The position numbers and the translations under genes are program-made. The notes beneath the pieces are model-generated. The model did not search any database and was not told the origin of the DNA. It worked only from the letters and a program-made list of their open reading frames with translations. This document shows, in pieces, positions 1 to 3,419 of a DNA stretch of 5,150 nt (its first letter is position 1; each line of letters starts with the position of its first letter). The stretch is taken from NCBI GenBank assembly GCA_009885185.1, contig VFLF01000771.1, positions 1 through 5,150 of the forward strand, given 5' to 3'. Source of the DNA: Nitrosomonadales bacterium. Lineage in GTDB: Bacteria; Pseudomonadota; Gammaproteobacteria; Burkholderiales; SG8-41.

Positions 1-275
1 GGCCGCTTGATGGCGCTGGGAAACTCGCGCATCAGCGCGGCGGCCCTGGCGTCGTTCAAACCCTGCTGACGCGCTGCCGGCAGATCGCGAAACGTCTTGC
101 CCTTGGTGTTCAACACGCGTTCCCAGCCGGCCTGCTTGATCCAGACCTTGATGCGCTCTTCAGGCGCGCCGAGCTTTTTGTAATCGTGAAAGGTGTATTC
201 GATGCCTTTGCCTTCGAGCCACGCGAAGGCTTTTTTCATGGTGCTTCAGTTGCGGATGCCGTAGATCGTAACCAC
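1..275 (-). CDS. yffB: YffB/ArsC-family thiol reductase, probable selenoprotein (Sec at codon 10), 3' end cut by window edge
   Basis: Read from GTG at 275 with the TGA at 248-246 as an amino acid, the product starts MVTIYGIRN-U-STMKKAFAWLE and continues for 91 codons to SAIKR at the window edge. It matches E. coli YffB (about 118 residues) along its length: beta-strand VTIYGI, then N-C-D-T with catalytic Cys10, then the KKA helix, FHDY near 29-32, GW near 50-51, LNTKG at 55-59, FR at 62-63 and IKRP at the end. YffB belongs to the thioredoxin-fold ArsC/Spx family; it is thought to be a glutathione-dependent cytosolic thiol reductase rather than a proven arsenate reductase. The TGA sits exactly on the catalytic cysteine. 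AAGGA (286-282) lies 6 nt before the GTG, so translation begins upstream of the TGA. The ATG at 239 has no Shine-Dalgarno and would lose the first strand and the active site. The gene is third in the selO operon, 11 nt after the hydrolase stop. The alternative is a nonsense mutation or sequencing error. Family assignment is firm; selenocysteine is well supported but unproven. Confidence 0.85.
210..230 (-). promoter_or_regulatory. Candidate bacterial SECIS stem-loop
   Basis: On the minus strand GCCUUCG (230-224) pairs perfectly with CGAAGGC (216-210), closing a 7-nt loop CGUGGCU (223-217). The stem has seven Watson-Crick pairs, five of them G-C. It begins 15 nt after the UGA and the loop begins 22 nt after it. 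Known bacterial SECIS elements lie inside the reading frame just downstream of UGA and carry a G in the first positions of the apical loop, with a GU read by SelB. Here G is the second loop base and is followed by U, about 26-27 nt from the first base of UGA; in E. coli fdhF the equivalent distance is about 22-23 nt. The element also encodes residues 16-22 (AFAWLEG). A chance hairpin cannot be excluded by eye. Confidence 0.7.
246..248 (-). other. In-frame UGA, probable selenocysteine codon (Sec10)
   Basis: This TGA is codon 10 of the YffB-like frame that opens with GTG at 275. The residues on either side (IRN before, STMKKA after) match the family pattern N-C-D-T-x-K-K-A, so the TGA replaces the redox-active cysteine. 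The family's following Asp codon is a Ser codon (AGC) here. A typical TGC GAC ancestor would therefore need several base changes, which is more than a single nonsense mutation. Downstream there is no further stop for the remaining 81 codons in the window. Confidence 0.8.
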
Positions 276-281
276 GTTGGT

Positions 282-286
282 TCCTT
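282..286 (-). promoter_or_regulatory. Ribosome binding site that fixes the GTG start of the YffB-like gene
   Basis: AAGGA on the minus strand immediately follows the hydrolase stop codon (289-287) and lies 6 nt before GTG at 275. It is the only good Shine-Dalgarno near this gene. Nothing comparable precedes the ATG at 239. It therefore places initiation upstream of the in-frame TGA. Confidence 0.75.
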
Positions 287-1138
287 TCAGGAGGTGAGAA
301 ATTCGTGCACGACAGTGATTTGATCGTCCGCCATCAGCATGGGCGCGTGCCCGATGCCGTCGAACGCCACCAGCCGCGCCTTGGGACCGCGTTGCGTCAT
401 GGCTTGCGCGGTGTCTTGCAGCAGCAAGTCTGAATCCGCGCCGCGCAACAGCAGCGTGGGGCAGGTGATACGGTCGTAGTAATCCCATAGCTCAATGTCG
501 TTGATGGGGCCTTGCTGAAACGGCGCCGCGATGCCGGGATCGTAATTCATGACCCATGCGCCGTCGGCGTTTTGTTTCGCGTTGTGGCGCGTCAGATGAT
601 CCCACTGCGCGTCGGTGAGCGGGCCGAACGGCGCGGAAACATAACGCACGTAGGCATTCATTTCATCCAGTGACGCAAACACGGGCGCCTTGCCGACATA
701 CTTGCCGATGCGTTCCAGCGAGGCCTTGGGGATCAGCGTGCCGACATCGTTCAGCACCAGCCTGCGCACGGGCGTGCCCGGCAAACTCGCCAGCAACATG
801 CCGATCATGCCGCCCATCGAGGTGCCGACCCACAGGATGTCTCTGGGGCCATCCGCCGTCAGGCGCGCCAGCAGCGTGTTGATATCGGCGAGGTACTGCG
901 GCAGGCCGTAGTGCTTTTTGTCGGCCAGCCATTCGCTTTGGCCGCGACCGACGATATCGGGACACACCACGCGAAAGTCATGTGCCAGCGATTGCGCCAG
1001 TGCGTCAAAGTCGCGGCAGTTGCGCGTGAGGCCATGCACGCAAATGACAATGCGCGGGTTGGCGCGCTGCCCCCACTCAGTGTAGTGCATGTGGTGCAGG
1101 CCGGTGGGGCTGAGACATTGAACGAAATTTTCTTGCAT
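287..1138 (-). CDS. Alpha/beta hydrolase
   Basis: The 283-residue product is a cytosolic alpha/beta-fold hydrolase with no signal peptide or membrane segment. Visible landmarks in order: oxyanion-hole HG at 35-36 in a hydrophobic strand (IVICVHG), D61 with GRGQS at 64-68, the nucleophile elbow GTSMGG at 105-110 with Ser107, a cap region around 135-215, the acid GADSDLL with Asp237 likely, and the catalytic His264 in GIGHAPML. The triad and length fit the esterase/lyase-type family; the substrate cannot be read from sequence. The ATG start is supported by AAGGA five nt upstream, just beyond the selO stop codon. The gap to selO is 7 nt and to the YffB-like gene 11 nt (stop at 287-289, GTG at 275), so all three are probably one transcript. 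It may serve detoxification or ester turnover, but that is only a guess from context. Confidence 0.9.
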   Translation of the reverse strand: MQENFVQCLSPTGLHHMHYTEWGQRANPRIVICVHGLTRNCRDFDALAQSLAHDFRVVCPDIVGRGQSEWLADKKHYGLPQYLADINTLLARLTADGPRDILWVGTSMGGMIGMLLASLPGTPVRRLVLNDVGTLIPKASLERIGKYVGKAPVFASLDEMNAYVRYVSAPFGPLTDAQWDHLTRHNAKQNADGAWVMNYDPGIAAPFQQGPINDIELWDYYDRITCPTLLLRGADSDLLLQDTAQAMTQRGPKARLVAFDGIGHAPMLMADDQITVVHEFLTS

Positions 1139-1145
1139 GATTTCC

Positions 1146-2603
1146 TTATGAGGAACAACTCACGTGTATGTCTTTCGCCCAGTCCGGCGGCGGCGCGGCA
1201 TAGGCCTCGAACGCGGGCTGTTCGTCAAACGGACGTTGCAGCAGCGCGAGCAAGCGGTCGATCTCGGAAAAATCGCGATGCTTCTCCGCTTTTTCGATGG
1301 CCGCCTGCGCGAGATGATTGCGCAGTACGTATTTCGGATTGACGGCGTGCATGCGGGCGCGGCGCTCCGTATCGTCGCTGGATTCCGCCGCCAGGCGCGC
1401 GGCGTAGCGGCCGGCCCAGGCGTCGAATGCAGGGCGGTTGATCATCAAGTCTCGCGCAGTATCCAGGTTGGCGAGCGCGCGAAAGAAAATCGTGTAGTCG
1501 GTGCCGTGTTCCGCCAGTAGCGCCAGCAGATCGCTGATGAGCGCGGTGTCGTCATCCATTGCTTGTGCCAGGCCCAGCTTGGCGCGCATCAACGCCGCGT
1601 ACTTTTTCATAAACGCGCCTTCGTAACGCGCCAGCGCGGCGTTGCATTGTTCCGCATCGATAAGCGGCGTCAATGCCTGCGCCAGGCGAGAGCAATTCCA
1701 CAGGCCGATGTAAGGTTGATTCCCGTAGGCGTAGCGGCCCTGATCGTCGGAGTGATTGCAAATGTGGCCGGGGTTGAACGCTTCCATGAATCCGAACGGG
1801 CCATAGTCGAGCGTGAGACCGAGTATCGACATATTGTCGGTGTTCATCACGCCGTGGCAAAAACCCACGGTCTGCCACTGCGCGATCAGCCGCGCGGTGC
1901 GTTCAACGACCTCGATCAGGAATTTTTCATAGACGTCCGGCGCGCCGTGGCATGCCGGAAAATGTTCTTGGATGACGTGATCAGCGAGCTGTTTCAGATG
2001 CTCGTGCTGTTGCCGCGCGTAAAAAACCTCGAACGAGCCAAAGCGCACGTGCGAGGGCGCCAGCCGCAGCAGCACCGCCGCGGTTTCCGGCGTTTCGCGA
2101 TACACCGGCTCGTCAGCGCCCGCGATGCCGAGCGCGCGGGTAGTGGGGATGCCCAGCGCGTGCATGGCCTCTGAACAAAGGTATTCACGGATGGTCGAAC
2201 GCAGCACCGCGCGTCCATCGGCGGTGCGCGAGAACGGCGTTTCGCCCGCGCCCTTGAGTTGCAGCGTCCAGCGTTCGCGTTTGGCATTGACGATTTCGCC
2301 GAGCAGAATCGCGCGACCGTCGCCGAGTTGCGGCACAAAGGTGCCGAACTGGTGACCGGCATACAGCATCGCCAGCGGCTCGGCGCCGGACGGCACGTGA
2401 TTGCCCGCCAGCAGATCGAGAAAGCGTTCGCTACGCGTATCGGCAGGATCCAGATCGAGCAGTGCGGCGGCGTCTTCGCTCACGCTCACCAGATAAGGCG
2501 CGGCCAGCGGCGTGGGATGCAGCTTGCGATAAAAAGCCGGGGGCAATCGCGCATAGCGGTTGTCGAAGGCGAGTGTGTCGATGGTTGTGACCGTGGATGG
2601 CAT
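1146..2603 (-). CDS. selO: Protein adenylyltransferase SelO (YdiU family)
   Basis: This 485-residue protein is a full-length SelO, a kinase-fold enzyme that transfers AMP from ATP to Ser/Thr/Tyr of target proteins and is linked to redox homeostasis and protein glutathionylation. Landmarks: FDNRYARLP at 13-21, YAGHQFG at 81-87, QLGDGRA at 92-98, LKGAG with Lys117, Glu140 in STIREYL, NTDN at 254-257 with Asp256 and Asn257, and DYGPFGF with Asp266. By comparison with the characterised Pseudomonas SelO these are the nucleotide/metal-binding and catalytic residues, and all are present. The C-terminus is C483-S-S; animal SelO has selenocysteine at this third-from-last position, and bacteria normally have cysteine as here (TGT codon). 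The protein length matches E. coli YdiU (about 480). The ATG at 2603 is the sensible start because the conserved FDNR block follows at residue 13, yet no Shine-Dalgarno precedes it; a TATAAT box lies 7 nt upstream, suggesting a leaderless message. It is the first gene of the operon. Confidence 0.97.
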   Translation of the reverse strand: MPSTVTTIDTLAFDNRYARLPPAFYRKLHPTPLAAPYLVSVSEDAAALLDLDPADTRSERFLDLLAGNHVPSGAEPLAMLYAGHQFGTFVPQLGDGRAILLGEIVNAKRERWTLQLKGAGETPFSRTADGRAVLRSTIREYLCSEAMHALGIPTTRALGIAGADEPVYRETPETAAVLLRLAPSHVRFGSFEVFYARQQHEHLKQLADHVIQEHFPACHGAPDVYEKFLIEVVERTARLIAQWQTVGFCHGVMNTDNMSILGLTLDYGPFGFMEAFNPGHICNHSDDQGRYAYGNQPYIGLWNCSRLAQALTPLIDAEQCNAALARYEGAFMKKYAALMRAKLGLAQAMDDDTALISDLLALLAEHGTDYTIFFRALANLDTARDLMINRPAFDAWAGRYAARLAAESSDDTERRARMHAVNPKYVLRNHLAQAAIEKAEKHRDFSEIDRLLALLQRPFDEQPAFEAYAAPPPDWAKDIHVSCSS

Positions 2604-2675: not shown

Positions 2676-3419
2676 ATGGACAAAGCCATCTGGGCCAACT
2701 GGTACAACCTTTCCGGCGACAACAAAGAGGCGTATCTCGACTGGCTGCACGGCAAGTTCATGCCGAAGATACTCGCCAATCCGGGCGTGTTGTGGGCGGC
2801 ACACTACAAAGTGGATCAAAAGCCCATTGGGCATCGCATTACGCGCACGCAAGACCCGGCGGTGGGCACGGGCAACGATTACATACTGCTGTTCGGCGGC
2901 GAAAGCACGCACGCGTTCGCACGCGATGCGCTGTCGTTCGCGCGCGGAACCACCGATCGTTGGGCCGCACAGTTATCCGACGAAGACAAAACCATGCTCG
3001 CCCGACGCGCGGATGTGCGCTTGAGCATCATGACCGAAGAGGCGCGCGTGCAGGGGCCGGAAAGCGGTCAGCGCGAAGGTCTGCGCAAACCCGCGCCGTG
3101 CATACAGATCGGCAGCTTCAACGGCCCGACGCCCGAAATCGAAGAAGAGTTGCTCGCGTGGTACGCCGACTGGCGCATGGCGTCGATGGCGAAAATGCCC
3201 GGCTGTCTCGGCATGCGCAAACTGGTCGGCACCGTGGGCTGGAACAAGCACGGCGTGATCTACGAATTTTTATCGCTCGAAGCGCGTGCCGCGGCGGTGG
3301 CGCAAGTGCCGGTGCTGTATCCCGAGATGGAAGCATGGACCAACCAATGCGTGCCCAAGCTGGTGCACGCGTATGGCTCGCCGCACGTGGCCGCACGGAT
3401 CTTTGTGCTGGAGAAGTAA
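2676..3419 (+). CDS. Hypothetical protein with two similar halves, likely a tandem dimeric alpha/beta barrel (ferredoxin-like) fold
   Basis: I do not recognise this 247-residue protein by name. It has no signal peptide, membrane segment or cofactor motif. It shows an internal repeat: residues 20-46 (YLDWLHGKFMPKIL then NPGVLWAAHYKV) parallel 159-185 (LLAWYADWRMASMAKMPG then CLGMRKLVG), sharing a Trp exactly 13 residues before a Pro-Gly (W23/PG36-37 and W162/PG175-176). Each half begins with a beta-like strand (IWANWYNL; CIQIGSFNG) and ends with another (DYILLFGG; GVIYEFLS). This helix-PG-strand pattern is typical of dimeric alpha/beta barrel proteins such as the EthD and antibiotic-monooxygenase groups, so a fused two-domain member is the best guess. 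The fold is inferred and the function unknown. The ATG at 2676 is supported by AGGA at 2666-2669, 6 nt upstream. It is transcribed divergently from selO and convergently with the YkgJ-like gene. Confidence 0.85.
   Translation: MDKAIWANWYNLSGDNKEAYLDWLHGKFMPKILANPGVLWAAHYKVDQKPIGHRITRTQDPAVGTGNDYILLFGGESTHAFARDALSFARGTTDRWAAQLSDEDKTMLARRADVRLSIMTEEARVQGPESGQREGLRKPAPCIQIGSFNGPTPEIEEELLAWYADWRMASMAKMPGCLGMRKLVGTVGWNKHGVIYEFLSLEARAAAVAQVPVLYPEMEAWTNQCVPKLVHAYGSPHVAARIFVLEK

What the first reader, a model, noticed from the sequence alone, without database searches (positions are those of the whole stretch)
210..275. YffB/ArsC-like reductase with UGA in place of the catalytic cysteine: probable unannotated selenoprotein
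Seen directly: GTG start with a good Shine-Dalgarno, nine family-matching codons, TGA at the exact position of YffB Cys10, then an uninterrupted matching frame for 81 more codons. Known: selenocysteine typically replaces redox-active cysteines in thioredoxin-fold proteins, and arsenate-reductase-like selenoproteins have, as I recall, been reported in metagenomic surveys; I do not recall a YffB-branch case. Inferred: Sec10 would make a more nucleophilic active site. A standard gene caller would stop at TGA or start at ATG 239 and lose the active site, so this gene would be mis-annotated.
Basis: partly seen in the sequence, partly recalled or inferred. Interest (0 to 1): 0.93.

Follow-up and report, generated by a model that had tools for sequence, protein, structure and literature searches.

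The report
Selenocysteine YffB reductase in betaproteobacteria
A small bacterial redox gene carries a UGA stop codon exactly where its relatives have their catalytic cysteine, the same UGA recurs in 16 related genomes, and it is predicted to be read as selenocysteine, giving a likely selenoprotein that gene-finding software cuts short.

Summary
Minus strand 275-3 reads VVTIYGIRN-UGA-STMKKAFAWLEG..., a YffB (ArsC-like) frame with UGA at the catalytic Cys position. It is not a lone error or decayed gene: 16 genomes of two betaproteobacterial families have UGA at the same codon. Of 120 listed homologues, 106 begin at Met13, the first ATG after the UGA. The 12 genomes first examined all have tRNA-Sec(UCA), selA and selB (one selB split), and 11 of 12 have selD with its own UGA. 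Each has one YffB gene, always with UGA. Codons 16-22 form a 7-bp hairpin that fits the published bacterial SECIS model; their synonymous sites are almost frozen (3.7% differences against 46% elsewhere and 57% in Cys genes). Hairpin stability alone is ordinary. Function (glutathione-dependent thiol/disulfide reductase with a catalytic selenolate) is inferred. Published ArsC-type selenoproteins are UxxS or UxxC; I found no YffB-branch, lone-Sec case in the papers searched. The window's own genome is not held and no protein was detected.

The parts
3..275 (-). yffB-type reductase gene, codons 1-91 (cut by the window end), GTG start (ATG in all 16 relatives)
246..248 (-). UGA, codon 10, at the catalytic Cys position; predicted Sec10
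249..275 (-). codons 1-9 (VVTIYGIRN), in-frame part upstream of the UGA; the motif YG[I/V][R/K][N/H] is kept in all 17 loci
210..230 (-). SECIS-like hairpin: stem 230-224 / 216-210, 7-nt apical loop CGUGGCU 223-217; codons 16-22, synonymous sites almost frozen
   Evidence: model from PMC13188914
237..239 (-). ATG codon 13, where 106 of 120 listed database relatives start; GTT in the G073 relative
281..287 (-). AAAGGAA, Shine-Dalgarno-like stretch
   Evidence: read by eye
287..1138 (-). alpha/beta hydrolase just upstream (11 bases between); its own stop at 289-287 is TGA, so TGA is a normal stop here
1146..2603 (-). selO (protein adenylyltransferase), 7 bases upstream of the hydrolase gene; upstream in 11 of 17 loci, window included

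Best explanation
The gene encodes a YffB-type (ArsC-like) reductase whose catalytic-cysteine codon is UGA in all 17 loci read, and it is predicted to be translated through that UGA into a selenoprotein. Shown: the conserved UGA, the conserved frame on both sides, the sel genes in relatives, and a nearly invariant hairpin sequence that starts 15 nt after the UGA. Inferred: the hairpin is the SECIS element that SelB with Sec-tRNA(UCA) would recognise; Sec10 sits at the active-site position of the thioredoxin fold in a GX3UX3K motif. The protein has no other Cys in 14 of 17 loci (the window's 91 residues included), and where one occurs its position differs, so the selenolate likely works as a single-chalcogen (monothiol-like) nucleophile that reduces disulfides or glutathione mixed disulfides and is regenerated by glutathione. 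In 10 of the 13 relatives of the larger family the gene lies downstream of selO, whose E. coli product AMPylates a glutaredoxin, so a shared role in S-glutathionylation control is possible but untested.
For: 17 loci (window plus 16) with UGA at codon 10 and the family frame before and after it; ATG at codon 1 in all 16 relatives. In the 12 genomes found by the pattern scan: tRNA-Sec 12 of 12 over cut-off, all with anticodon UCA; selA 12 of 12; selB 12 of 12, 11 over cut-off and one split between contigs; selD 11 of 12 over cut-off, each with its own UGA. One NF008107 match per genome, always with one TGA, and no second copy. In the family of G004, all 13 UGA genomes of 74 have selA. Synonymous differences in codons 16-22: 30 of 816 pair comparisons, against 2829 of 6125 in codons 23-91; the family's 27 Cys genes 825 of 1445 in the same block. 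The only variant (GAG, 2 of 17) keeps the pair as U-G. All 17 fit a script version of the published SECIS constraints, Cys genes 6 of 27. The G073 relative has Val13, so no ATG there. YffB binds glutathione (PMC3169414, abstract and passages). Cys counts. selO positions.
Against: Hairpin stability is not exceptional: 2356 of 5000 synonymous recodings fold as well and 462 of 2000 pass the same SECIS constraints. No Rfam hit in the window up to E 1. The selD hairpins of these genomes failed my strict unbulged version of the model, 0 of 11. selA is common in the family at large (67 of 74), so it does not single out UGA genomes. The genome of the window is not held, no protein was detected, and 13 of the 16 relatives belong to one family, so the loci are not independent. 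In G077 of the second family the part with codon 10 is missing.
Confidence: 0.93

Rival explanations
1. The protein really starts at Met13; the upstream codons are untranslated remains and the product is a truncated YffB without its catalytic residue.
For: 106 of 120 listed database relatives are predicted this way.
Against: Codons 1-9 are conserved in frame in 17 loci with a start codon at position 1; the G073 relative has Val (GTT) at codon 13; a truncation does not explain frozen synonymous sites 16-36 nt after a conserved UGA.
Confidence: 0.03
2. UGA is read through with another amino acid (Trp or Cys), by a code change or a suppressor.
For: UGA is the only in-frame stop and the frame stays open.
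Against: TGA ends the adjacent hydrolase gene (289-287); the aligned residue is Cys, not Trp, in all 27 family Cys genes; Sec machinery in relatives. Insertion of Cys at a Sec UGA is not excluded by sequence.
Confidence: 0.03
3. A decayed gene or a sequencing or assembly error.
For: A single base separates TGA from TGC/TGT; the window is from an unnamed contig.
Against: The same UGA in 16 related genomes, 12 of them under different sequence records; protein conserved downstream while 46% of comparable synonymous codons differ.
Confidence: 0.01

Closest known systems
YffB / NF008107 (PRK10853) ArsC family reductases, PDB 1rw1 and 2kok
   Same: Sequence family, ungapped alignment to 2kok, GX3[C/U]X3K motif, the Arg of IKRP, no conserved second Cys
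   Different: UGA instead of Cys10; MKKAFAWLEG clade; Ser or Thr instead of Asp after the active residue in all 17
ArsC-type selenoproteins of the ocean surveys: ArsC 1 (UxxS, pfam03960/COG1393) and ArsC 2 (UxxC, cd03032); NF041106
   Same: Same Pfam superfamily, Sec in the active-site motif
   Different: Motif here is U-S-T-M with no Ser or Cys three residues on; best model is NF008107. TIGR00014 is far below cut-off for the window piece; NF041106 is not listed for it up to E 1 and is far below cut-off for two Cys relatives. The survey sequences themselves were not compared (one search shows table rows only)
Uxx-star glutaredoxin-like selenoproteins (NF041114, NF041212)
   Same: Glutaredoxin-like (seleno)proteins by model name
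   Different: Match of 13-14 bits against cut-offs of 66-72 over 34 residues only

Membership tests
YffB (ArsC family reductase, NF008107) | Match to the family profile over its curated cut-off (121 bits) | tested here: inconclusive
   Best of all NCBIfam models, E 9e-28, 96.8 bits for the 91-residue piece. Full-length UGA relatives score 102-113 bits in 12 genomes and 116-119 in G076 and G078, all under the cut-off; the close Cys relatives P0003 and P0009 score 120.1 and 125.4.
YffB (ArsC family reductase, NF008107) | Catalytic Cys in GX3CX3K | tested here: not met
   UGA in its place in 17 of 17 loci; G, K and spacing kept. It is therefore described as YffB-type, a Sec variant, not as a plain member
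YffB (ArsC family reductase, NF008107) | Glutathione-dependent thiol reductase activity | not testable with these tools
   Glutathione binding reported for two YffB proteins, activity itself only proposed (PMC3169414, passages)
Bacterial selenoprotein | In-frame UGA conserved among relatives, aligned with Cys in homologues | tested here: met
Bacterial selenoprotein | Sec machinery in the genome | tested here: met
   In relatives: 12 of 12 for tRNA-Sec and selA, 12 of 12 for selB (one split, under cut-off), 11 of 12 selD; the window's own genome is not held, so not tested there
Bacterial selenoprotein | SECIS hairpin 16-37 nt after UGA, loop 3-9 nt, G in its first two positions, stem 4-16 bp, energy at or below -7.5 | tested here: met
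   Loop CGUGGCU 22 nt after UGA, 7 bp, -9.0; 462 of 2000 recodings also pass, so the frozen synonymous sites carry the weight
Bacterial selenoprotein | Selenium in the protein | not testable with these tools
   needs labelling or mass spectrometry
ArsC-type selenoproteins ArsC 1 (UxxS) / ArsC 2, NF041106 (UxxC) | UxxS or UxxC motif | tested here: not met
   UxxM in 16 of 17 and UxxV in one

The most novel reading that the evidence does not exclude
A whole clade of betaproteobacteria runs a selenium-dependent branch of S-glutathionylation control: a one-selenol YffB, encoded in a selO-hydrolase-yffB operon, acts with the AMPylator SelO, and in genomes without a selenium formate dehydrogenase it is a main reason for keeping the selenocysteine machinery.
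Probability: 0.2. Interest if true: 0.82.

Novelty: new variant of a known kind. Interest (0 to 1): 0.7.

Why it matters
YffB is a reductase family of unsettled function (PMC3169414). A selenocysteine version kept by a clade argues that residue 10 is a true catalytic nucleophile and gives a handle for assays (Sec versus Cys forms). It also points to a selenoprotein family whose database copies mostly lack the first 12 residues and with them the active site (106 of 120 listed), and it adds a client other than formate dehydrogenase and SelD for the Sec machinery of these betaproteobacteria.

Tried and rejected
Hairpin energy as evidence: z-scores from -0.91 to +0.85 for five stretches and 2356 of 5000 recodings equally stable, so dropped as an argument. 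Rfam: no hit in the window. One gain of Sec: the protein tree (95 rows; 37 of the 106 Met13-starting proteins taken and counted as UGA without their DNA being seen) needs at least 6 changes between U and C, but no well-supported branch forces more than one, so neither single nor repeated gain is claimed. A formate dehydrogenase as the sole reason for the sel genes: TIGR01553 matches with an in-frame TGA in 7 of 12 genomes only (6 over cut-off, one partial). The shared apex between yffB (GCGUGGCU) and selD (GCGUUGCU) hairpins is suggestive only; the formate dehydrogenase hairpins have another apex. Three of 15 pattern hits (L003, L008, L009) were chance matches and were dropped. G077 was dropped from the 17 because codon 10 is missing there. 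Structure prediction was not run.

Full report
Observation. The window's minus strand from 275 reads GTG GTT ACG ATC TAC GGC ATC CGC AAC TGA AGC ACC ATG AAA AAA GCC TTC GCG TGG CTC GAA GGC.... The frame is open for 81 codons after the TGA up to position 3, where the window ends. With Cys for the TGA it is an ArsC-superfamily protein whose best model is NF008107, the YffB branch. It aligns without gaps to the solved YffB structure 2kok, with residue 10 on its Cys. The adjacent hydrolase gene ends with TGA at 289-287, so TGA is also used as a stop in this organism.

Relatives. A protein search gave 253 hits, 120 of them listed. Of these 120, 106 begin exactly at MKKAF, the first ATG after the UGA, and 14 are full-length with Cys at position 10. 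For most of the 106 I did not see the DNA; that they carry UGA is inferred. A scan of one genome for each of 84,980 species for the UGA form of the motif gave 15 stretches: 12 real yffB genes, all in records titled Burkholderiales, Betaproteobacteria, beta proteobacterium or Bordetella parapertussis, and 3 chance matches. The pattern misses variants (it would miss the G073 and G078 genes), so 12 is a lower bound. Family searches added four more UGA genes, G073, G075, G076 and G078, giving 17 loci with the window. In the family of G004, 13 of 74 genomes have the UGA form, 27 have a form without a stop, one has a weak match only and 33 have none. The UGA genomes of a second, four-genome family are G001, G076 and G078; in the fourth, G077, the part with codon 10 is missing and the TGA counted there lies in unrelated upstream sequence. 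In 399 genomes drawn from the order, 231 had a match; among the matches listed (not all of them) a TGA is reported only in members of these two families (membership by handle).

Machinery. The 12 genomes of the scan were searched for the Sec genes. tRNA-Sec: 12 of 12 over the cut-off, each with anticodon UCA. selB: 12 of 12, 11 over cut-off, with G003 in pieces on two contigs. selA: 12 of 12. selD: 11 of 12 over cut-off, each with an in-frame UGA; G009 has only a weak match. NF008107: exactly one match per genome, always with one TGA. selA is common in the family at large, 67 of 74 over the cut-off, so its presence fits but does not by itself single out the UGA genomes. The genome of the window is not held.

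RNA signal. Codons 16-22 read GCC TTC GCG TGG CTC GAA GGC in 15 of 17 genes and GAG for GAA in two. They form a 7-bp stem with loop CGUGGCU, 22 nt after the UGA. The published bacterial model asks for a 3-9 nt loop, a 4-16 bp stem, G in the first two loop positions often followed by G or U, 16-37 nt spacing and energy at or below -7.5 (PMC13188914, passages); all 17 fit my script version of it. The GAG variant turns U-A into U-G and keeps the pair. Synonymous differences within the block are 30 of 816 pair comparisons, against 2829 of 6125 in codons 23-91, and 825 of 1445 in the block of the 27 Cys genes. Of 100,000 random sets of six invariant codon columns, 39 were as uniform. Between the window and the diverged G073 gene, 59% of comparable codons in 23-91 differ and none in the block. 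Against this, the hairpin is not unusually stable: 2356 of 5000 recodings fold as well, 462 of 2000 recodings and 6 of 27 Cys genes pass the constraints, and the selD hairpins failed my strict form of the model, 0 of 11, probably because they hold a bulge.

Mechanism. YffB from Brucella binds glutathione next to its GX3CX3K motif, and its authors support a glutathione-dependent thiol reductase and point out that two of the three ArsC arginines have no counterpart (PMC3169414, abstract and passages). Here G, K, the spacing and the Arg of IKRP are kept in all 17. Apart from codon 10 there is no Cys in 14 of 17 proteins (the window's counted over 91 residues), and the single Cys of the other three stands at three different positions. 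So a lone selenolate, regenerated by glutathione, is the likeliest chemistry; this step is inferred. SelO AMPylates a glutaredoxin in E. coli, and cells without it have less protein glutathionylation (PMC12663964, passages). selO lies upstream in 11 of 17 loci and the hydrolase in 12 of 17, in two overlapping pieces in L006. The loci with neither are L001, L082 and L083 (the second family), L014 and L081 (the last with only 540 bases upstream); L002 has 365 bases upstream, enough for part of the hydrolase gene only. In the window the gaps are 7 and 11 bases. A functional link is a lead, not a result.

Evolution. Close Cys relatives (P0003, P0009, P0017, P0025, P0067) fall among UGA rows in a weakly supported protein tree, as expected when Sec and Cys interchange, but the direction is not resolved. 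The family's own 27 Cys genes form a separate branch.

Novelty. The surveys list ArsC 1 (UxxS) and ArsC 2 (UxxC) (PMC2398784, passages), an arsenate reductase with UXXS (PMC1088965, passages), ArsC-like (PMC1794560, passages), and UxxS and UxxC forms in reviews of 2022 and 2026 (PMC9312934 and PMC13188914, passages). The main texts of PMC13188914, PMC9312934 and PMC2398784 do not contain the word YffB, and PMC13188914 does not contain UxxM; PMC1088965 and PMC1794560 were not searched for these words. The main text of a 2025 selenoprotein-prediction paper has no arsenate reductase, ArsC or Spx (PMC12013277, passages). Searches of the held library for YffB with selenocysteine gave one paper, a Nautilia genome paper seen only in the listing, and for selenoprotein with Burkholderiales and selenocysteine two papers, seen only in the listing and on other topics by title. 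Two further searches gave no title on such a protein. Subscription papers and preprints are not covered, and the survey sequences themselves were not compared. I therefore rate it a new variant of a known kind.

Noticed in passing
window 287-2603: selO and an alpha/beta hydrolase sit directly upstream of the predicted selenoprotein gene with gaps of 7 and 11 bases; selO is upstream in 11 of 17 loci, the hydrolase in 12 of 17.
   Followed up: partly
L086-L096: selD of 11 of these genomes has its own in-frame UGA, and its hairpin apex (GCGUUGCU) resembles that of yffB (GCGUGGCU).
   Followed up: partly
G001, G003, G006, G007, G008: No TIGR01553-type formate dehydrogenase with an in-frame TGA is reported in these five of 12 genomes although the Sec machinery is present; other clients were not searched and the assemblies may be incomplete.
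   Followed up: no
L002, L010, L012, L013: Record titles say Bordetella parapertussis, but these metagenome-assembled genomes (G002, G007, G009, G010) fall in one family with genomes titled only Betaproteobacteria; the titles look like mislabels.
   Followed up: no
L084 (G077): The yffB relative lacks its first 17 or so codons; upstream DNA shows no trace of them, through loss, insertion or assembly.
   Followed up: partly
window 2676-3419 (+): 247-aa protein with no Pfam or NCBIfam match at E 0.001; relatives lie near selO in L006, L010 and L015.
   Followed up: no
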